From Candidatus Poribacteria bacterium (GTDB taxonomy: Bacteria; Poribacteria; WGA-4E; WGA-3G): a stretch of DNA of 64,000 nucleotides. Shown here one piece after another: positions 23,638-32,353 of this stretch; position 1 is the stretch's first letter, and each line of letters starts with the position of its first letter. Under the pieces are notes generated by a model, which was not told where the DNA came from, did no database searches, and worked only from the letters and a program-made list of their open reading frames with translations. The stretch is taken from positions 4,430,682 through 4,494,681 of the forward strand of contig OY282374.1 in the NCBI GenBank assembly GCA_958295815.1, in the 5' to 3' direction. The position numbers and the translations under genes were made by a program.

Positions 23638-23939
23638 GGTATTGTGTTTAATTATGACGGAATTATATCACTTTTTGTCGCAGCATGCAAACCAATATTG
23701 AGACGTTCAACAAAGATGTATTGATAATTTATCTTATTTTAAGTATAATGGTTTCAATGGTACGATAGCACCCGCTCCGTCTGGGGCAACGCACCTGAGA
23801 AGAGGAAGGAAGCGAGATCTTTCTTCGTCCGACCTATCACAAACAGCGTTAGGTTCGCATTTTTCACACAACTCTCTCAAGTCGTTTTTTAAGTTCGTAA
23901 AAACTCGATACCGTATGTTCTCTATGGAGATTTTCCTAC
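23638..23939. other. Regulatory gap before the accessory island
   Basis: No gene seen. It holds a strong promoter for the 1007-residue gene and a leader of roughly 180 bases with a purine/pyrimidine stretch (GAAGGAAG and CTTTCTTC) that could form a G-U-rich hairpin. This is the left edge of the accessory region. Confidence 0.55.
23721..23749 (+). promoter_or_regulatory. Sigma70-like promoter for the 1007-residue gene
   Basis: TTGATA (23721-23726), 17 bases, TATAAT (23744-23749). Expected start near 23756, giving a leader of about 185 bases. Confidence 0.65.
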
Positions 23940-26900
23940 ATGGAATCTGTGAAGGATATTATCCAGCAGTGCCATGAACGGCGACGAAAGGATCTGCAGC
24001 AGCGGGAGACGATTGTCTCACCCACGTTGCACGGTGAGTACCCTTACCACTATATTGTTTATTGTGCACATCGGTATCCGTTGCTTTTGCATGACCTTGA
24101 ACAGGCAGATATTTCATTTATGCCGATTGGACAGGCACCATTTGATCGAGGTCCAGCGTATCGTGGTGGCAGTCGTTTCTTAAGACGACAACGCACGCTC
24201 GACTGGAGCCCGAGGCGATGGTTTTCGTCGTGGGGTATTCAGGTTTATACAGGAACGCCATCTGCACGCGAGGAAACTAACTGGCATGATATCGAGTTCA
24301 CCTACAGAGCAATTCGAGACGCACCTGATGCCGTCGTTGCGTGTGTGGATGCTCTCGTTAACGCTGTTATGAACCCGCTACTCACCTTACTCAAGGGTGG
24401 AGGCTTGCGGTTTTCGTGTCGAGTGCCGGACTATCTTCATTCAAACACAATGGACGCGAGGCAGTATGTTCATAAGCACCGACCTGACATAGATCATCCT
24501 CGTGATCGAGATGTCTACGTAGACATCGTTGGGGATAAAGGCTACAGCCGCTGGGATGCCCGTTACGAGATTCTTAAGGGCAACCTATTAGATCCGCCTA
24601 TCATTTCTAAAGACGTGCTTTTTGCGTTTCTCGATGTCTTGCGAGAGTTACTACATGAACCCGCCCCGGCATCAGAATTAGACACGACAAATGAAGTGAT
24701 CGTGGATACACAGGATTGGGACGATTTCGCTGCTATAGAATCATTAGAAGCAGAGCAAGTTGTGAATGAAAGTATCCTTGCAGTACGACGTGGGAAGCTT
24801 TCTCCGATTGGCATAAAACGACCAAGACCGTTTCTTGAAAACGTGGAACACACTGAGTCGGAGGATGAGAGGAATCTCTCCGAAGGGGAAGAACGCATTC
24901 TTGGGGTCGTCACGGGTCCCATAAGCACTGAAAAGAGACGTAAGATCGAAGCCACGTTTCTCGATACCACCCCTATATGCGTCAACTCTAATACGGTTTC
25001 TGACGCCGAGAATGCAGAGCAGTACTACAAACATCAGGGGGTTACCGTCGGGCGTTGGAAACCGAGAAACTATCGCTGGGAACAGGTAAAGGCGATACCG
25101 ATTGCTGAACGGATACAGAACCCTTTTGCGCATGAGAACGTCTGCGAAGATGCTGAAAGATGTGATGCGTTAGAGCAGAAAGGCGGTGATCCAAATAAAA
25201 GTATCTGCCCGAGTTGTCCTGTTTATGAGGCGTGTCAAGCGCGCGGTTATCTTTCGCAATTCGAGACGCTCAAGGAGAAGCAAGTCATTGTATCAGAGAT
25301 TCCGAACCTTTTTCTGGATCGGCGGTATACAGCGTTTGTTGATGCGTTGATTGTTCCAAATCGAATCTGTATTATAAATGATTTTGAATCCCAACTCGCT
25401 AAACTCTTTTCAGAACATCATCTGTCAATCGAAATTCTTGAAGGCTGGCTCATTAATTGGAGTGGTGCAGTGTTGGGTGAATTCGCGAAAACAATGCTGA
25501 ACGCAATTAGGATCACAGACAGTCAACATGGCGATATTGCTAAGCGGATTCGCACCGTTGTTCAGGCGTTTGAAGGGTTTGAAGATAGCATTATTCAACA
25601 GATGTGTCAGGTAAATTGTACAGGCAAAGATGGCAGCAGGGTCGCAATAGATATTGATAGTGCGATCGAGTTTGGGACTTTGGATATATCGACCTCAGAA
25701 ATCATAGAGAAGTCCACAAATGTGTATCGCGACCCGGAGTGGACGCTATGGCATCAGTTGAAGACATTCTTTGCGTATTACACGCGCGACATGGATGCTC
25801 CAATGTTTGTTGACGACGGGATTTTACGGTTCTGGTTACCGCCGAAAATTCATCAAGAGATTCAGGAACTAGTGTTTATATCGCCAACGTTCTCGGAAGA
25901 TTGTTTCAAAGAAGTGTTTCCTGAAGAGACTGTTTCGGTCAGGCGGGTTAAACCACAGGAGATATCGCTTTCAGGAAACAAGTCTTTTCAGCTGCGGAGC
26001 GCGCCGCATATCTCCTATGCCATCGCAAACTACGAGGTTAATTGGGATGTGTTTAGCCTTTCTGAAATTGCGAGTCGCTTTTTTCGCGGTATCTATCAAG
26101 AAATGAATCGGCATCCGGATCGCAATCATGTCATTATCTCGAGCACAAGCGCGGTGCACATGTTGAAAAATGTATTTGATAAGGTTATCAGCTACCACGA
26201 TCTCATCAAAGACACCCCGGCACACCCTGAGGATTTGCGATCTACTTTTGAAGATACTAACGTTTACTACGACCGCATCAGGGTTCTACGATCCATCTTT
26301 GAATCCGCTAACGTTGTCTGGATCGTTGGCACGCCTTATTGGCCCCCAAAATTCATCTGGGAACAAGCGAAAATATTGTTTGGAAATCAAGTGGAGCCCT
26401 TAAATTATAACTTGACAATGAATCCTTATCAATTTGAAGATGAACGGGTACAAGAACTCTACGAACAGAATGCCGTGGGTGTCCTGGCACAGATTATCCG
26501 TATTGCTGGATTTAATGAGGCACCAGATAAAACGCTGATCCTCAACACGCCGTTGCGGATTCCCTCTATCACCGATGCACCAGAGACGGAATTGTTTGAT
26601 TGGGAAGACTTTGAGATCGCTAATGGGTTGGATGAACTTTCAGAAACGATTCGGATACGCGAGGATCACGAGGCAGAATACGCGAACATGGACGCGTCTT
26701 GGAGTCGGAAACGCGTTGAATATTTGCTTGGTGTCTCTAAGGCACAAGCGAACCGCATCTTGATGAGACTGAGGGGCAGTAAACTCGAGCGTGTCCCATT
26801 TCACGCCCAGATTTTCGAGCTGCTCTCGGATGGAGAGAAAACAACATCTCAAATCGTTGAATCGATTCAGGGAAATCCGGGGTCCATTAAAAATGAACTC

Positions 26901-26963
26901 ACACATCTTGTAGAAACAGGTGAGATTGTGAGGGTCCGACGCGGTGTTTATGCGTTAGCATAG
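23940..26963 (+). CDS. Large helicase-like protein with Cys cluster and C-terminal winged helix
   Basis: 1007 residues, function unknown. Residues 1-260 form a conserved-looking domain of unclear fold. Cysteines 402, 408, 423, 426 and 432 (C-x5-C-x14-C-x2-C-x5-C), followed by GYLSQ, VIVSEIPNLFLD and RICIINDFE (480-483), parallel the Fe-S cluster and motif II region of DinG/XPD helicases, but DEAH is replaced by NDFE and no GKT/GKS Walker A is visible. A region near residues 840-890 (LAQIIRIAGFNEAPDKTLILNT) resembles a degenerate helicase motif VI. The last 75 residues form a winged helix (TTSQIVESIQGNPGSIKNEL). GGAG precedes ATG 23940 by 10 bases. Helicase ancestry is inference; a replication protein of a mobile element is an alternative. 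Confidence 0.75.
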   Translation: MESVKDIIQQCHERRRKDLQQRETIVSPTLHGEYPYHYIVYCAHRYPLLLHDLEQADISFMPIGQAPFDRGPAYRGGSRFLRRQRTLDWSPRRWFSSWGIQVYTGTPSAREETNWHDIEFTYRAIRDAPDAVVACVDALVNAVMNPLLTLLKGGGLRFSCRVPDYLHSNTMDARQYVHKHRPDIDHPRDRDVYVDIVGDKGYSRWDARYEILKGNLLDPPIISKDVLFAFLDVLRELLHEPAPASELDTTNEVIVDTQDWDDFAAIESLEAEQVVNESILAVRRGKLSPIGIKRPRPFLENVEHTESEDERNLSEGEERILGVVTGPISTEKRRKIEATFLDTTPICVNSNTVSDAENAEQYYKHQGVTVGRWKPRNYRWEQVKAIPIAERIQNPFAHENVCEDAERCDALEQKGGDPNKSICPSCPVYEACQARGYLSQFETLKEKQVIVSEIPNLFLDRRYTAFVDALIVPNRICIINDFESQLAKLFSEHHLSIEILEGWLINWSGAVLGEFAKTMLNAIRITDSQHGDIAKRIRTVVQAFEGFEDSIIQQMCQVNCTGKDGSRVAIDIDSAIEFGTLDISTSEIIEKSTNVYRDPEWTLWHQLKTFFAYYTRDMDAPMFVDDGILRFWLPPKIHQEIQELVFISPTFSEDCFKEVFPEETVSVRRVKPQEISLSGNKSFQLRSAPHISYAIANYEVNWDVFSLSEIASRFFRGIYQEMNRHPDRNHVIISSTSAVHMLKNVFDKVISYHDLIKDTPAHPEDLRSTFEDTNVYYDRIRVLRSIFESANVVWIVGTPYWPPKFIWEQAKILFGNQVEPLNYNLTMNPYQFEDERVQELYEQNAVGVLAQIIRIAGFNEAPDKTLILNTPLRIPSITDAPETELFDWEDFEIANGLDELSETIRIREDHEAEYANMDASWSRKRVEYLLGVSKAQANRILMRLRGSKLERVPFHAQIFELLSDGEKTTSQIVESIQGNPGSIKNELTHLVETGEIVRVRRGVYALA

Positions 26964-27066
26964 TCAGAAACTCCCCTTTCAAAACTCATTTTTTGCACAA
27001 AATTCAAAAAAACAAGGCTTTTTCTTCCAAAAATTGTATTTTTCATACAAAAAATGCATTTTTTTC

Positions 27067-27095
27067 TTGCAAAAGTGAATTAATTTGTGTATAAT
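27067..27095 (+). promoter_or_regulatory. Sigma70-like promoter in the AT-rich region
   Basis: TTGCAA (27067-27072), 17 bases, TATAAT (27090-27095). No annotated gene follows on this strand for 3 kb. Transcription would start near 27102, right at a 32-codon open frame (27103-27201) whose ATG is the first bases of the inverted repeat. Confidence 0.6.
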
Positions 27096-27102
27096 CTTAA
27101 AC

Positions 27103-27221
27103 ATGACTGAAATCCACCTATACATAATACGTCATTATGATTACAGTCATATAGAATTCATACTGAAATCCATTCATACCTACATTCATACTTTTCCATG
27201 ATTTCAGTCATACAGAATTCA
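27103..27221. repeat. Inverted and direct repeat block
   Basis: ATGACTGAAATC (27103-27114) is the exact complement of GATTTCAGTCAT (27200-27211). The direct repeat units are 27139-27160 and 27200-27221, both ending in AGAATTCA. A third half-site, TACTGAAATCC, is at 27161. The spacing suggests several binding sites for one protein. Confidence 0.65.
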
Positions 27222-27257
27222 ACAGAAGATTTCGGTAGAGTGCGGAGAGGATGCTTT

Positions 27258-27273
27258 AGAGGAGCTCTCCTCT
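27258..27273 (+). other. GC hairpin
   Basis: AGAGGA (27258-27263) pairs with TCCTCT (27268-27273) over a GCTC loop, without a following T-run. It could end or stabilise an RNA made from the promoter at 27067. Confidence 0.4.
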
Positions 27274-27647
27274 CTGCCTCTGCTGAAATACTACGACTGC
27301 CTTTCAACCCTCCCTCAAGCCACTTGGATAAATATCCCCTCGCATGCTTAACAGATAGAAATATTTGTTGAATCCATCAGGAATTACCCAATGCGCTACG
27401 AAATGTGCTGCTACAAACCATGCCGCTTTCGAGAAACAGACGTATTAGGCGGCTATTTATAGTCAGGAAACGCCTTATTGCCTGTCTGCGTAAGTTCTAA
27501 ACGTTGTTGTCGTCCATCTTGTGTTGGATTTGTAGGTTATCGTCGAAGAGAAGGGTGCTTAGTTCAAATCGGATGTTCATACCTGCAAAATTATCATATA
27601 TTCTTACTTTTATCCAGATGCCCATAGGTTGGGCAAACAATAAAAAT

Positions 27648-27917
27648 TTATTTTGGAATAATCTCGACTCTTATTGAAACACCAAGACGTTCAGCAATCC
27701 TGTCAAGACATGCCTTTTTGTGTTCGTTTCTTAGATCTCTTGATATATAATACCCTCCCACTTTATAGAACACCCGGCTGCTTGAAGATAACTGAAACCG
27801 TGAAATAAGCATATTGTTGTCATCTACACTTAAGACACGTTCCGGACCGAGTCTAAAAATCACCTTTTCTACAGTATCCGCTGCTATAGGGCACGCAATA
27901 ATTTCTCCATCGGGCAT
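27648..27917 (-). CDS. Small hypothetical protein, possibly frameshifted
   Basis: 89 residues beginning MPDGEIIACPIAADTVEKV and ending with a basic helix (NEHKKACLDRIAERLGV). No known family recognised. The ATG at 27917 has no ribosome site. A well-placed AGGAAGGG precedes an ATG at 27949 that opens MNNPHNDFG and then shifts out of frame; removing one base near 27917 would join it to this frame as MNNPHND...RVTMPDGEII. So the gene may be frameshifted, or the shift may be a sequencing error. It lies downstream of the two TIR-like genes on the same strand and could be a third member of that array. Confidence 0.45.
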   Translation of the reverse strand: MPDGEIIACPIAADTVEKVIFRLGPERVLSVDDNNMLISRFQLSSSSRVFYKVGGYYISRDLRNEHKKACLDRIAERLGVSIRVEIIPK

Positions 27918-28058
27918 CGTGACCCGAAGTCGTTATGTGGGTTGTTCATACAATTTCCCTTCCTATATTCATCCAAAGATGGTAAAGTTTTCAACATTCA
28001 TAGGTCAGTTTTTTGCTTTTCAAATGCCATTATGAAGTTGAGTGTGAGCATAAGGCTC

Positions 28059-28880
28059 CTAAAAAATCTTATTCATATCAACAGGAAAATCTGTGTTTTT
28101 CAATTCTTGCCCCAGTTTCAATTTCCAATCTTCACCATCCATGGACACATAGATTACACCATCAATATCTGAAGGTTTCTCTATTTTCCCTTTGAAGAGC
28201 GGACATACTCGTTCACGTCCCAATTTTCCCATGAAATATCCGAGTTCAAAAACAACATTCTGTCGGGCTCTCGGTTTGTGCTCGTACTCAATCTTATTTT
28301 TTAGACCGCCAATATCATCAGGTGTGAGCAAAACGACTGCAAAGCCTGCCTTGTCAGCGTATTTTTCAAGTTTCTCAATTATTGTTTGTGATCCACTAGG
28401 TTGCTCGTGAAGGATAGTTGCCTTTAAGCCCAATTTCTCTAGGAACCTCGCGACAGTTTCCTTAGCCCCATCGTCCTGCCCGTGTACAATAAACACTTCG
28501 CTGCCAAAGACAGACGGATGAGTGTCTGATAGTTCATCATACAACTCAAGCTGCTCAAAGATCCCCTCTAGATTGGTAACCTCGTAGGATACATCTTTTC
28601 GGTACCAACCTATTTCATCATTCAGGGCAGGATTTGTCCATCCAACAAAAACAGGAAATCCCTTGTATTTATCTGCTATTGAAGAATTATCAAATAGTTT
28701 AGACAAGAGCGTTTTATTGTACCCTGACCATTTTTTAAACTCAGATTTAGCCTTGTTCAATTCAGTTTTTGAATCTATCTGCCGATCACGAAGCAGTTGT
28801 CCCTCGTTAATTCTCTCTTGTATTTTCTTTTTTGCTTCTTCTCTACTCACAAGTAACTTTGGATGAACTTTCTCCTCCAT
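28059..28880 (-). CDS. TIR-like nucleotide-binding protein (CAP12/PCTIR type), copy A
   Basis: 273 residues. The N-terminal 110 are helical and charged (VSREEAKKKIQERINEGQ); the C-terminal domain (about 128-273) is the TIR-like fold first described as a predicted nucleotide-binding protein: SEVFIVHGQDDGAKETVARFL, AVVLLTPDD, RARQNVVFELGYFMGKLGRERV and DIDGVIYVSMD. E212 in FELGY is the likely catalytic Glu by analogy to NAD-cleaving TIR domains. Related domains serve as effectors in CBASS and other anti-phage systems. No cyclase gene is nearby. It lies 72 bases downstream of copy B, with a similar leader and GAGGAG ribosome site. Confidence 0.88.
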   Translation of the reverse strand: MEEKVHPKLLVSREEAKKKIQERINEGQLLRDRQIDSKTELNKAKSEFKKWSGYNKTLLSKLFDNSSIADKYKGFPVFVGWTNPALNDEIGWYRKDVSYEVTNLEGIFEQLELYDELSDTHPSVFGSEVFIVHGQDDGAKETVARFLEKLGLKATILHEQPSGSQTIIEKLEKYADKAGFAVVLLTPDDIGGLKNKIEYEHKPRARQNVVFELGYFMGKLGRERVCPLFKGKIEKPSDIDGVIYVSMDGEDWKLKLGQELKNTDFPVDMNKIF

Positions 28881-28951
28881 AGTTTCTCCTCTATTTCACC
28901 ATTTATTGATCTATTGGATGAAAGCAATATGATCCCGTAGTGTTAAGATAT
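28877..28951 (-). repeat. Duplicated leader of TIR-like gene A
   Basis: This segment, which includes the ribosome site AGAGGAGAAAC and the start codon, closely matches 29810-29885 ahead of copy B. So the duplication unit covered leader plus gene. It may carry a promoter, but no clear -10/-35 pair was found. Confidence 0.6.
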
Positions 28952-28952
28952 G

Positions 28953-29813
28953 TTAGTTAGGTAGGAGTTTATTCATATCAACAATTATACCAACGGATGC
29001 CATTTCTTGAGCCAAGTCTAGTTTCCACGCGCCGCGCTCATCCATCTGCACATAGATTATTCCGTGAATGTCTGACGGTAGTTCAACACCTTCTTCATAA
29101 AGTATACGCACACGCTCGCGCCCTAACCCACACAAGAAATAGCCCAGTTCCAAGATAACGTTCTGACGAGCCCTTGGTTTGGGTTTGTCTGTTTTATCTT
29201 TTGGCGCAACAATATCATCAGCTGTTAGCAAAACAATTGCAAAGCCTGCTTCATCTGCATGTTCTTCAAACTTATCAATGATTGTTTGGCCTCTGCTTGG
29301 CTGCTCATCAAGTATAGTTGCACTTAAGTCCAAGTCAGCAATGAATCTAGCGATCTTGTGTTTGGCAGCTTCGCTATGTCCGTGCACTATGAAAATCTTG
29401 TCACCAAAAGTGCGTGTAGGAGGGTCTGGTTTATCAAACAGTTCAAGTCTGTTCTGGATTCCCTCTAGGCTTTTAATGGTATTTGTCATCTTGCCCTTGA
29501 ATTCAACTACTAGATCGTTCAAGTCTGGTACGCCCCATCCCATAATACTCCTGTTTTCTAACTCATCAAAAGTAAGCTTGGAGTAATGAAAATTTTCATA
29601 TTCATCCTCCAATGTAAAATTGTCAAATAGTCTTATTAAGAGATCAATATTATATCTTGACCAATTGTTGGAATCCTTACCTACTCTGTCCAAGTCATTG
29701 TCTGAGGATATTTCCTGGTCGTGGAGTTGTTGTCCCTTATCAATTCGCTCTTGTATTTTCTGGGCTGCTTCTTGTTTACTCACAAGTAACTTTGGTAGTG
29801 TTTTCTCCTCCAT
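28953..29813 (-). CDS. TIR-like nucleotide-binding protein (CAP12/PCTIR type), copy B
   Basis: 286 residues, clearly paralogous to copy A: MEEK.LPKLLVS..EA..KIQERI..GQ.L at the N-terminus, then DKIFIVHGHSEAAKHKIARFI, AIVLLTADD, RARQNVILELGYFLCGLGRERV and DIHGIIYVQMD. The catalytic Glu candidate is E222. Identity is higher in the TIR domain than in the middle (about 75-130), where this copy has 13 more residues, so the two may sense different partners. First gene of the minus-strand array, transcribed away from the HNH gene. SD and leader match copy A. Confidence 0.88.
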   Translation of the reverse strand: MEEKTLPKLLVSKQEAAQKIQERIDKGQQLHDQEISSDNDLDRVGKDSNNWSRYNIDLLIRLFDNFTLEDEYENFHYSKLTFDELENRSIMGWGVPDLNDLVVEFKGKMTNTIKSLEGIQNRLELFDKPDPPTRTFGDKIFIVHGHSEAAKHKIARFIADLDLSATILDEQPSRGQTIIDKFEEHADEAGFAIVLLTADDIVAPKDKTDKPKPRARQNVILELGYFLCGLGRERVRILYEEGVELPSDIHGIIYVQMDERGAWKLDLAQEMASVGIIVDMNKLLPN

Positions 29814-30201
29814 AGTTTCTCCTCTATTTCACTATTCGTTGGTCTATTGGATAACAGTAATGTAAGTCTGTAATGTTAAGGATTGTAGCATTAATTGGCA
29901 GACCCATCAACAGAAACCACGCGAACGATAGAAATACTTAGTAGATTACAAGGACACTATCCTTTAAAGAGCTAAAGAACAAAAAAACTCTGCAACAAAA
30001 ATCCAGATTGAGTTTTATATAACCAACTTGAAATTCCTACCACATACATATTATAATTGTTAGTCAACCATTGCCTCAATTTATTCACATGACCTGTCAT
30101 AGAACTGGTGAAGTTCTCATAAACGCAAGCAAACCTTTATCGCACCAATTCACTTAGGTGCCCTTTATATCAGTGAACGGTTAGAGGACTCTAGAAATAC
30201 T
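29814..30201. other. Divergent control region between TIR-like gene B and the HNH gene
   Basis: No gene seen in 388 bases. The left part is the copied leader of gene B. The rest is AT-rich and holds the promoter for the HNH gene (30028-30057). No clear minus-strand promoter was found. Confidence 0.55.
30028..30057 (+). promoter_or_regulatory. Sigma70-like promoter for the HNH gene
   Basis: TTGAAA (30028-30033), 18 bases, TATAAT (30052-30057). Leader would be about 140 bases. Confidence 0.6.
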
Positions 30202-31314
30202 ATGTCCACACAGAAATTCAGCGCAGCAGAACGAGAGGCTATTTGGTTAGCTCATGGTAAGAAGTGTACATATACAGGAGAATCCCTTGACGTAAGTAAT
30301 TTTCACATTGATCACATAATTCCAGAGTCTCTTACTAAAGATCCTACTGCATTCAAAGATAAAATAGCAGAACTGAACTTGCCATCTGACTTTAACATAC
30401 ATGGTTATGAAAATTTGTTGCCTTGTTGCCCCAGAGCAAATTTTCAAAAAAGTAATTTAATACTTCCGCGCCCCGATTTCTTTTTAGGTATAGCTGCTGC
30501 GAAAAAGGAGAAGGTAGAATCAAATCTATCTCACATCAACAAACAAAAAGTTCGTGGAAAGGCAATTATCCTACTGCATCAATGCTTGGAAAGTGGCTCC
30601 CTTACTCCGGATGAAGTCGCTAAAATTCTTCAGCAATATTCTAAGCAACCAGAATCTATCTTTGAACTTATCGCAGGTATGAAGTTTTCTAATGGCGATG
30701 AAGTGAAGTCTATCGCTCAAGCTGAAATCGAATCTCTTTGGGACCTGCCTATTTGGTTCGGTGAGTATTATATTGATGGATTACCCTTCAGGAATAAAAA
30801 CGGTGAACAAACTTTTGTTCGAACGTGTAGAGAATATGAGTCTGCTTGTGCACAAGACTACTATGCCGTTTCAAACGCCGTTCTCAAAACGTCGGTAAGG
30901 TTCCATCAACGATGTGGACTACTAAGGTCACTTCAGTCCGCAACTACTCCACAACAGAGTTTTATTTCAAACCCTAAAGTCGGAGTCGTCGATTTAGAAT
31001 TACTGCCACTGTTGCTTTTTCCTTGGATTGAAGATGAGTTAGGAAGCATAGAACTGGACGCGACATATCAGAGTAAAGTAAAAGATGGGGAACTCGTAGT
31101 AAAAAGCGTGAGCCAAAATTCATTGGAAATTGTAGCACCAAGAGATATGGGACAACGTTTGATAGAGGTGGTTCGAGCTGACTTTAACGGAGATGGCATT
31201 GAAGATATATTGCTTTTTGAGTACTGCTTCGCTACAGAGGGAACGCTGGGCTTTGGCGGGACTCGGATCTTGACAAGGAAATCAATAGATGGGAAATTTG
31301 AAATAGTAGAATAA
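30202..31314 (+). CDS. HNH endonuclease-fold protein with FG-GAP-like C-terminus
   Basis: 370 residues. Residues 10-90 hold an HNH nuclease fold: C22 in KKCTYTG, then NFHIDHIIPESL (H35, D37, H38), a loop, NLLPCC and N80/N85 in NFQKSN, matching the HNH signature with Asp-His and the last Asn. The middle is a helical domain without recognised family. Near the end, RADFNGDGIEDILLFEY resembles an FG-GAP or EF-hand-like calcium loop, unusual for a DNA-cutting protein. No signal peptide. It faces away from the TIR-like genes. A nuclease for restriction or defence is likely, but the target is unknown. Confidence 0.8.
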   Translation: MSTQKFSAAEREAIWLAHGKKCTYTGESLDVSNFHIDHIIPESLTKDPTAFKDKIAELNLPSDFNIHGYENLLPCCPRANFQKSNLILPRPDFFLGIAAAKKEKVESNLSHINKQKVRGKAIILLHQCLESGSLTPDEVAKILQQYSKQPESIFELIAGMKFSNGDEVKSIAQAEIESLWDLPIWFGEYYIDGLPFRNKNGEQTFVRTCREYESACAQDYYAVSNAVLKTSVRFHQRCGLLRSLQSATTPQQSFISNPKVGVVDLELLPLLLFPWIEDELGSIELDATYQSKVKDGELVVKSVSQNSLEIVAPRDMGQRLIEVVRADFNGDGIEDILLFEYCFATEGTLGFGGTRILTRKSIDGKFEIVE

Positions 31315-31341
31315 GAGAGCGTTTTTACGGACTTCACCCCA

Positions 31342-31359
31342 GAGGTACAGTAGTACCTC
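31342..31359 (+). promoter_or_regulatory. Inverted repeat, possible operator of the DUF433 gene
   Basis: GAGGTAC (31342-31348), AGTA, GTACCTC (31353-31359): perfect 7-base arms, 24 bases upstream of the DUF433 start. Without a T-run it is a poor terminator. Antitoxins often bind such palindromes to control their own operon. Confidence 0.45.
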
Positions 31360-31383
31360 ACAAGCCTAATAAAAAGAGCACAC

Positions 31384-31608
31384 ATGCCAATTCATTGGAA
31401 AGACCACATTATTAGCACATCGGATATATTACGAGATAAATCGCGTATAAAGGGAACAAGAATACCAGTAAGTCTGCTCCTCGGATATTTGGCAGCAGTT
31501 CGGACAATAGACGAAATTATTGCTGAATTTCCTGATCTCAAAGCCATGCAAATTCAAGGTTGTCTTGATTACACGCGTGAGTTAGCAGAATTTGAGGTAG
31601 TTGCTTAA
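31384..31608 (+). CDS. DUF433 antitoxin-like protein
   Basis: 74 residues with the DUF433 pattern: IISTSDILRDKSRIKGTRIPVSLLLGYLAAVRTIDEIIAEFPDL is the HTH-like family core. DUF433 proteins are antitoxins normally followed by a DUF5615 PIN-like toxin whose start overlaps their stop. Here the overlap TAATG (stop 31606-31608, ATG 31608) is present, but the toxin is cut to 36 codons. So this is an orphaned antitoxin. Confidence 0.85.
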   Translation: MPIHWKDHIISTSDILRDKSRIKGTRIPVSLLLGYLAAVRTIDEIIAEFPDLKAMQIQGCLDYTRELAEFEVVA

Positions 31609-31718
31609 TGGAATTTCAGCTTTTCGTAGATCAATGTGTTCCTACTAAATATTTACATCAAACAGTGAAAAATATAACTATGGTGAATTATAGAAATAAG
31701 TTAACATGTTTTCTGTAG
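31608..31718 (+). pseudogene. Truncated DUF5615-like toxin remnant
   Basis: 36 codons starting MEFQLFVDQCVPTKYL, which matches the start of DUF5615 toxins (a hydrophobic strand, then the acidic V-D-x-x-x-P motif). The rest of the roughly 110-residue domain is missing. The last Leu codon and the TAG stop lie inside the palindromic repeat that begins at 31713, so insertion of that repeat, or deletion at it, ended the gene. Assignment rests on the short motif and on position. Confidence 0.55.
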
Positions 31719-31780
31719 GAGCGATCTCCGAATCGCGACGAAACGCCCTGAGAGTCGGGAATCGGAGTTCCCTCCTACAG
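31713..31780. repeat. CTGTAGGAG palindromic repeat element (MITE-like), copy 1
   Basis: 68 bases with 25-base imperfect terminal inverted repeats: CTGTAGGAGCGATCTCCGAA at the left and its near-complement at the right, ending CCTCCTACAG. Each arm contains its own small hairpin (GCGA/TCGC and GGGAA/TTCCC). Related single arms are at 55941-56018. Confidence 0.8.
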
Positions 31781-31836
31781 TGTAAAGTGTAAGATTAATT
31801 CTAAAATCTACCATAAATTCACATTGGAGGAAATAT

Positions 31837-32064
31837 ATGAAACCTTATGGAAATCTGGGTAGAAACTCTGGAGTCGCTGCGTATGAAGTCGGACCAGATT
31901 TCATCGTAGTTGAGTTCTCTACCGGTGCCATGTATGAGTACACATATGAAAGTGCTGGCAGGGATAATATTGAGCATATGAAACAATTAGCAGAAAGTGG
32001 ACATGGCCTAAACTCATTCATCAATACGGAGGTCAGGAACCTCTATGCTGCGAGAAAGCGTTAG
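31837..32064 (+). CDS. KTSC-domain protein
   Basis: 75 residues fitting the KTSC domain: GVAAYEVGPDFIVVEFSTG, YEYTYESAG and the end GHGLNSFINTEVRNLYA. These small domains occur alone or next to lysyl-tRNA synthetase-like and phage or defence genes; function unknown. GGAGG stands at good distance before the ATG. It closes the accessory island. Confidence 0.88.
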   Translation: MKPYGNLGRNSGVAAYEVGPDFIVVEFSTGAMYEYTYESAGRDNIEHMKQLAESGHGLNSFINTEVRNLYAARKR

Positions 32065-32102
32065 TTGGTTTTTCGTTAGAATGAAATGCGCGGATGGATT
32101 CT

Positions 32103-32175
32103 TAGTAAAACCCACAATTACTTGGACACTTGTAAAGAGTCGGGGTTACAAACCCCTCCTACAAAGAGCAGATCT
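32103..32175. repeat. GGGGTTACAAACCCC repeat, short form, copy 1
   Basis: About 72 bases nearly the same as 36052-36122: TAGTAAAA...ACAATTAC, then ACTTGTAA, GAGTCGGGGTTACAAACCCC, then TCCTACAAAGAGCAGATCT. The core palindrome is 32142-32156. Confidence 0.8.
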
Positions 32176-32353
32176 CATATGTGTTAATAATGTCTATTTA
32201 TGGGATTTACCATAATCCGTTGTTTTCACAGAGTGGTGACTTATCCATACTGCTATCTACTTTATCTGAGCAGTTTGAGAAAATTCTTGACATCCCACCT
32301 TAGATCTTGTACAATAAAACCCCAAGTAAGACATATCGCATGTGGAGGTTCTT

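What the first reader, a model, noticed from the sequence alone, without database searches (positions are those of the whole stretch)
23940..26963. 1007-residue helicase-like protein with apparently dead ATPase motifs
A five-cysteine array followed by VIVSEIPNLFLD and a hydrophobic strand parallels the DinG/XPD Fe-S region, but motif II reads NDFE and no Walker A is seen. A degenerate motif-VI-like segment and a C-terminal winged helix follow. So it may be a structural DNA-binding sensor that evolved from a helicase, or a replication protein of a mobile element. It stands first in the accessory island with its own strong promoter.
Basis: partly seen in the sequence, partly recalled or inferred. 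Interest (0 to 1): 0.62.

Follow-up and report, generated by a model that had tools for sequence, protein, structure and literature searches.

The report
Dead primase-helicase kept by selection
A sponge-symbiont bacterium keeps many chromosomal copies of a protein descended from a plasmid DNA-copying machine (a primer-making part joined to a DNA-unwinding part); in this copy, as in most others, the unwinding motor is broken, yet selection still preserves the rest, so it probably now works by binding DNA rather than by unwinding it.

Summary
ORF 23940-26963 (+) encodes 1007 aa with a five-Cys array, no P-loop, and NDFE at motif II. The genome is a Ca. Poribacteria chromosome with 11 loci of this family, which I found only in Poribacteria. 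The predicted structure confirms an XPD/DinG-type Fe-S helicase core (Foldseek top 22 all XPD/DinG/TFIIH, E down to 1e-10). Intact relatives (GKTT, DEPN, QAILRLRQ) lie in integrative elements beside integrase, ParA/ParB-like and Rep_3 genes, so the ancestor was probably a mobile-element primase-helicase. Among 100 members only 11 keep both Walker A and motif II, and the motor was lost several times. Four cysteines stay invariant (97/97), and dN/dS is 0.16-0.21 in motif-dead clades, no higher than in motif-intact ones (0.22-0.26). The window gene is a syntenic orthologue in at least nine species, in an argG-lplA hotspot that can be empty. Best reading: a domesticated, motor-dead primase-helicase kept as a DNA-binding scaffold. 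Its biological role (regulator, Fe-S sensor or decoy against related elements) is inferred, not shown.

The parts
23940..26963 (+). CDS of the motor-dead primase-polymerase/Fe-S helicase homologue, 1007 aa
   Evidence: syntenic orthologues 78-86% identical in 14 other genomes; dN/dS about 0.19
23940..24674 (+). residues 1-245: AEP (prim-pol) fold
   Evidence: model pLDDT 81.5, pTM 0.82; top PDB hits pRN1 ORF904 and NrS-1 prim-pols; viral library top hits DNA primase/polymerases, E 3.9e-7
24288..24296 (+). residues 117-119 (D-I-E): position of AEP motif I acids (pRN1 D111/E113)
   Evidence: D117 in 104/105 members; residue 119 acidic in 68/105; equivalence to pRN1 is inferred from order, context and fold
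24393..24422 (+). residues 152-161 (KGGGLRFSCR): AEP motif II, His replaced by invariant Arg157
   Evidence: R157 in 105/105; also R in the element-borne homologues L156/L157
24522..24524 (+). residue D195: position of the third AEP acid (pRN1 D171)
   Evidence: D in the window, but R/K/H/E in orthologues, so not held by selection
24903..24941 (+). residues 322-334: eroded Walker A (GVVTGPISTEKRR)
   Evidence: alignment with AETGAGKS of paralogues and PAQTGKTT of the element-borne homologue
25143..25235 (+). residues 402-432: five-Cys array (candidate [4Fe-4S] ligands C402, C423, C426, C432)
   Evidence: four Cys invariant in 97/97, C408 in 93/97
25377..25388 (+). residues 480-483: eroded motif II (NDFE)
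   Evidence: aligns with DEVH/DEA/DEPN of better-preserved relatives
25869..25898 (+). residues 644-653: LVFISPTFSE, degenerate version of the SSTLSE/SATL motif
   Evidence: alignment
26487..26522 (+). residues 850-861: eroded motif VI
   Evidence: Q851 kept, Arg lost throughout the window clade; intact as QAILRLRQ/QAAMRLRP in L157/L148
26652..26954 (+). residues 905-1005: HTH followed by a winged HTH
   Evidence: weak AbiEi_4/HTH matches; helix/strand pattern of the model
23721..23749 (+). promoter TTGATA-17-TATAAT, about 190 nt upstream of the ATG
   Evidence: conserved in the 13 orthologues compared

Best explanation
The gene encodes a domesticated descendant of a mobile-element replication protein that joined an AEP primase-polymerase domain to an XPD/DinG-like Fe-S helicase and C-terminal HTH domains. 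SHOWN BY SEQUENCE AND PREDICTED STRUCTURE: the fold of both halves, erosion of Walker A, motif II and motif VI, retention of the Cys array, vertical or near-vertical retention at one chromosomal site, and purifying selection. INFERRED: it no longer hydrolyses ATP or unwinds DNA. The C-terminal HTH domains probably recognise a DNA site, while the Cys-array/arch and the motor scaffold hold a single-stranded or junction structure. The protein then acts by occupying DNA, as a regulator or as a competitor of related replication complexes, rather than as an enzyme.
For: XPD/DinG fold: the 22 best of 350,542 PDB chains are XPD, DinG, CasDinG or TFIIH, E down to 1.3e-10. Prim-pol fold. Intact ancestor-like proteins: L157 matches the window N-terminus at 37%, BLASTP 6e-42, and the Cys region at 4e-6; profile comparison over 877 columns gives E 1.6e-44. 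They keep GKTT, DEPN and QAILRLRQ. Such homologues lie beside integrase, ParA/ParB-like and Rep_3 genes. Motor loss: 11 of 100 members keep both motifs, 70 have neither, 5 lack the segment; the motif-intact label needs 7 changes on the tree. The motif-VI Gln/Arg pair is eroded even in most of the 11. Constraint persists: dN/dS 0.19 for the window orthologues; 0.16 and 0.21 in two dead clades and 0.20 in the segment-deleted clade, against 0.22-0.26 in clades with motifs. Four Cys 97/97.
Against: No biochemical or expression data. The AF2 models rest on shallow alignments (20 and 82 sequences from one lineage) and the full-length pTM is 0.60. Foldseek E for the N-terminal domain against PDB is only 3e-3, though the ten best hits are all prim-pols. 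Residues D117, E119 and D195 of the window could still form an AEP catalytic triad. Proteins with degenerate motifs can retain ATP binding or weak activity. DNA binding is predicted only from HTH folds.
Confidence: 0.72

Rival explanations
1. The motor is dead but the prim-pol domain is still a working primase/polymerase, so the protein primes DNA in repair or replication restart without its own helicase, as Rep proteins without an NTPase domain do.
For: The window holds acids at all three AEP positions (D117, E119, D195), E119 is kept in the whole window clade, and R157 is invariant; Arg/Lys in motif II occurs in another AEP family, and ColE2 Rep unwinds without an NTPase (PMC5862659).
Against: In the orthologues position 195 is R, K, H, D or E, and across the family position 119 is non-acidic in 37 of 105 (H, N, Y, T, Q, V, A), which no metal-dependent polymerase should tolerate. 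The accessory domain between prim-pol and helicase is deleted in the window clade.
Confidence: 0.12
2. It is the replication protein of a resident mobile element and acts in that element's replication.
For: Homologues with intact motifs are encoded next to Rep_3, ParA and integrase genes. [quoted passage not shown]
Against: No integrase, partition or Rep gene lies near it in the window. In one species (L051) it alone occupies the argG-vgb interval. Motifs are eroded. Paralogues are orphans in varied ordinary neighbourhoods. No relative in IMG/VR contigs; a better-preserved paralogue has none in the phage or plasmid records.
Confidence: 0.05
3. It is a decaying relic, in effect a pseudogene that happens to be open.
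For: Several catalytic motifs are lost; some relatives carry stops or are truncated.
Against: dN/dS is about 0.19 over 91 orthologue pairs, and about 0.13-0.16 for the prim-pol, 791-900 and HTH segments. The promoter is conserved in 13 of 13. Dead clades are as constrained as motif-intact ones.
Confidence: 0.03
4. It is an Fe-S redox or damage sensor that regulates transcription through its winged helix.
For: Invariant four-Cys array independent of the motor, tandem HTH, and an own conserved promoter with a leader of about 190 nt.
Against: No operator or target is known, and two family branches lost the whole Cys segment yet are retained, so the cluster is not needed for every member. This is one version of the best explanation, not excluded.
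Confidence: 0.08

Closest known systems
XPD/DinG (Rad3-type) Fe-S SF2 helicases, including CRISPR-associated DinG
   Same: Two RecA-like domains with Cys array and arch between motif I and motif II; same fold and motif order
   Different: Walker A, motif II and motif VI are lost; fused to an N-terminal prim-pol and C-terminal HTHs; Cys spacing 20-2-5. A 2025 DinG review returned no hit for a primase fusion or for 'degenerat' (PMC11981726)
Archaeo-eukaryotic primase-polymerases (pRN1 ORF904, NrS-1 and Caudovirales prim-pols)
   Same: N-terminal fold and order of the three acidic positions and motif II
   Different: Motif II His replaced by invariant Arg; motif I and III acids not conserved; ORF904 is fused to an SF3 helicase, not an XPD-like one (PMC3973330)
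Element-borne primase-helicases of Poribacteria (L157/L205, L156, L158/L206, L148/L154)
   Same: Prim-pol or BT4734-type N-terminus, five-Cys array, motor, HTH; 37% identity to the window N-terminus in L157
   Different: Intact GKTT, DEP/DEV and Q-x-x-x-R-x-R motifs; located in integrative elements
AbiEi antitoxins
   Same: Short similarity of the C-terminal wing
   Different: About 20-25 residues only, below the Pfam cut-off; no AbiEii partner next door

Membership tests
XPD/DinG Fe-S helicases | Two RecA-like domains with Fe-S/arch insert fold | tested here: met
XPD/DinG Fe-S helicases | Four conserved cluster cysteines between motifs I and II | tested here: met
   C402, C423, C426, C432 in 97/97; presence of a cluster itself not tested
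XPD/DinG Fe-S helicases | Walker A (GKT/S) and DEAH/DExx motif II | tested here: not met
   GVVTGPISTEKRR and NDFE; not intact in any member of the window clade
XPD/DinG Fe-S helicases | Motif VI arginines | tested here: not met
XPD/DinG Fe-S helicases | ATP-dependent 5'-3' unwinding | not testable with these tools
   needs protein
AEP primase-polymerases | Prim-pol fold | tested here: met
AEP primase-polymerases | Motif I DxD/E and a third acid held by selection | tested here: inconclusive
   present in the window (D117, E119, D195), not conserved in orthologues or family
AEP primase-polymerases | Motif II His (or family-specific substitute) | tested here: inconclusive
   invariant Arg157; Arg/Lys is known for DR0530-like AEPs
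Mobile-element replication protein | Encoded within an element with integrase, Rep or partition genes | tested here: not met
   window and paralogue neighbourhoods; met only by the intact homologues
AbiEi antitoxin | AbiEi domain above cut-off with AbiEii partner | tested here: not met
   22.9 bits against cut-off 25, 21 residues; no partner ORF beside it

The most novel reading that the evidence does not exclude
Poribacteria have turned an integrative-plasmid primase-helicase into a diversified chromosomal family of non-enzymatic Fe-S DNA-binding proteins (about ten per genome here) that occupy origin-like or replication-intermediate DNA and block related mobile elements: immunity by dead replication proteins.
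Probability: 0.15. Interest if true: 0.85.

Novelty: new variant of a known kind. Interest (0 to 1): 0.6.

Why it matters
Mobile-element replication proteins are usually thought of as element-bound enzymes. Here one has become a multi-copy chromosomal family in which the helicase motor was lost several times while the prim-pol fold, a four-cysteine array and the DNA-binding tail stayed under strong selection. That gives a natural experiment on what an Fe-S helicase scaffold can do without ATP, and it joins two known modules, a prim-pol and an XPD/DinG-like motor, in one chain. The pairing of dead chromosomal copies with intact element-borne relatives in the same bacterial family makes a test of domestication or anti-element function direct.

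Tried and rejected
Pfam, NCBIfam, PADLOC, PHROGs and PDB sequence searches gave nothing for the first 950 residues, and a family profile against PDB sequences gave nothing. The full-length model left residues 1-273 mostly below pLDDT 50, so the N-terminus was remodelled alone with 82 sequences. Profile comparison of the N-terminus with the pRN1 sequence failed (probability 0.2%), so that link rests on fold only. AbiEi membership was rejected (21 residues). A functional link with the TIR genes was considered and rejected: neighbours differ between orthologues and one species has the gene alone in the interval. A transposon was considered: paralogue flanks show local tandem and segmental duplication, with no shared ends around dispersed copies in the blastn comparison. 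Wholly vertical inheritance is not clean: divergence correlates with argG/MoxR/sulfatase (r 0.44-0.47) but not with the lplA side (r about 0.1). No Rfam family in the leader or window. Absence of the primase-DinG fusion from the literature was checked only in the held open-access library.

Full report
OBSERVATION. The ORF at 23940-26963 (+) is 1007 aa. It has the cysteine array C402-x5-C408-x14-C423-x2-C426-x5-C432, then KQVIVSEIPNLFLD and a strand ending in NDFE (480-483). It has no P-loop. Pfam finds only a sub-threshold AbiEi_4 wing at 987-1007. NCBIfam and PDB sequence searches find nothing, and PADLOC and PHROGs find only weak matches to the C-terminal end.

FAMILY. The window lies at 4430682-4494681 of a single 5.13-Mb contig. 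The nearest records are uncultured Candidatus Poribacteria. The same chromosome holds 11 loci of this family including the window gene, one of them truncated; four stand in tandem at about 461-474 kb. Among 98 related genomes, 49 have members, nearly all in one family-level group. In 84,980 species genomes all 80 loci returned, of 133 confirmed, are Poribacteria. IMG/VR gave none, and phage and plasmid records gave none for a better-preserved paralogue. Paralogues are orphan genes in ordinary, differing neighbourhoods. Flank comparison shows local tandem and segmental duplication rather than common element ends.

DEGENERATION READ BY ALIGNMENT. Better-preserved paralogues show GLIAETGAGKS, LCIVDEVH/LCIIDEA and LLLMSSTLSE where the window has GVVTGPISTEKRR, ICIINDFE and LVFISPTFSE. 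So the Walker A site is residues 322-334: the lysine (K332) is kept, the Gly and Ser/Thr are gone. Of 100 members placed on a tree built without the motif segment, 11 keep both motifs, 9 motif II only, 5 Walker A only, 70 neither, and 5 lack the whole segment. The 17 rows of the window clade are all dead. The motif-intact label needs 7 changes (4 forced by well-supported branches), so the motor state changed repeatedly (FastTree). The motif-VI Gln and Arg are eroded even in most motif-intact paralogues, so many of those may be inactive too.

STRUCTURE. The full-length AF2 model (20 sequences; mean pLDDT 67, helicase part mostly 75-95) matched XPD, DinG, CRISPR-associated DinG and TFIIH chains in all 22 best PDB hits, E down to 1.3e-10. 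The N-terminal 245 residues, modelled alone with 82 homologues (pLDDT 81.5, pTM 0.82), matched prim-pols in the ten best PDB hits: pRN1 ORF904 (E 3e-3, probability 1.00), then NrS-1. In the viral library the named top hits were mainly DNA primase/polymerases, E down to 3.9e-7. Profile comparison of sequences alone did not reach pRN1, so this link rests on fold. By order, strand context and local sequence, pRN1 D111/E113, H145 and D171 correspond to D117/E119, R157 and D195 (inference; pRN1 sequence). D117 is present in 104/105 and R157 in 105/105. Position 119 is acidic in only 68/105, and position 195 is R, K, H, D or E among the window's orthologues. The His-to-Arg change is not by itself evidence of death: motif II is family-specific in AEPs (PMC5862659).

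ORIGIN. A profile of better-preserved members found distant relatives. L157 (G054) is a 1048-aa protein whose N-terminus is 37% identical to the window protein (BLASTP 6e-42); its Cys region matches at 4e-6. The profile alignment spans 877 columns, E 1.6e-44. It has LTDLDFEF, PAQTGKTT, the same cysteine array ending GYLSQ, LAIDEPNP and MQAILRLRQ, that is, prim-pol and motor motifs apparently intact. It lies with an integrase-like gene, XRE/HTH genes and a ParB-like gene (L205). L158/L206 lies with a Rep_3-type gene. L148/L154, whose N-terminus is BT4734-like (Pfam 3.1e-12), lies with ParA, integrase, restriction-modification and Rep_3-type genes. These neighbour names are my reading of the translations, apart from the BT4734 match. 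[quoted passage not shown] The simplest history is domestication of such an element's primase-helicase, followed by expansion and repeated loss of the motor.

SELECTION. Fourteen orthologues (91 pairs) give median dN 0.091, dS 0.45 and dN/dS 0.19. The most constrained segments are prim-pol (0.16), 791-900 (0.13) and HTH (0.145); the Walker A region is looser (0.29). Two other dead clades give 0.16 and 0.21 and the segment-deleted clade 0.20, against 0.22-0.26 for clades with motifs. Loss of the motor therefore did not relax constraint. Four cysteines are invariant (97/97). The promoter TTGAYA-17-TATAAT is conserved in 13/13, although one such match is expected by chance in a single sequence.

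LOCUS. In the five further species examined over about 19 kb the gene stands beside argG, MoxR and a sulfatase gene. What follows it before vgb/lplA varies: TIR pair plus HNH here, a PemK-like gene, a type III RM-like pair plus TIR, or almost nothing. argG is also found beside the gene in most of the others, where the contig reaches. Species without the gene have an empty argG-lplA junction (G012, G022) or other cargo (G018, G027, G033, G001). Its divergence follows argG, MoxR and sulfatase moderately (r 0.44-0.47) but not lplA, so exchange among strains is possible. The neighbours are not obligate partners.

MECHANISM. Most likely: a non-catalytic DNA-binding scaffold. HTH domains select a site; the Cys-array/arch and motor fold hold single-stranded or junction DNA; the prim-pol fold is structural. 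Shown: folds (predicted), motif loss, conservation, origin, selection. Inferred: absence of ATPase, DNA binding, Fe-S cluster. Unknown: which DNA and to what end. Blocking related elements is attractive because intact relatives exist in the same bacterial family, but four genomes carry an intact homologue and three of those also carry dead copies, so there is no sign of mutual exclusion.

NOVELTY. The modules are known; this combination, and a selected, motor-dead, multi-copy chromosomal family derived from it, was not found in the papers consulted (open-access library only). I call it a new variant of a known kind.

Noticed in passing
window 28059-29813 (-): Two adjacent TIR-domain genes (CAP12/PycTIR-type TIR; PADLOC candidate PDC-S35), apparently a tandem duplicate, AT-rich relative to the flanks (GC about 0.39)
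   Followed up: partly
window 30202-31314 (+): 370-aa protein with an N-terminal HNH motif weakly similar to Cas9/PtuB HNH domains and an unrelated C-terminal part
   Followed up: no
window 23638-32342 and syntenic loci L047-L051, L198-L204: argG-vgb/lplA interval is an integration hotspot in this genus: cargo includes TIR, HNH, PemK-like, type III RM-like and other genes, and some species have an empty site
   Followed up: yes
L007, L008, L031, L034, L075 (about 790 aa): A family branch in which the whole Walker A-Cys segment is cleanly deleted but prim-pol and C-terminal parts remain under purifying selection (dN/dS about 0.20)
   Followed up: partly
L028, L029, L030, L032, L080, L096, L125 (about 950-1000 aa): Further members that lost the Cys array while keeping the prim-pol and C-terminal regions
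   Followed up: no
L040 and L041 (own genome, about 388-408 kb): Segmental duplication about 20 kb apart of a family member with its flanks (89-94% identity over about 0.8-1.0 kb on each side); the second copy is truncated
   Followed up: partly
L154 (G019:C61:10000-29000): Integrative element with ParA, integrase, thymidylate-kinase-like, restriction-modification and Rep_3-type genes, and a BT4734-N primase joined to a Fe-S-type helicase
   Followed up: partly
window 23750-23939: Leader of about 190 nt between the conserved promoter and the ATG with well-conserved stretches; no Rfam match
   Followed up: partly
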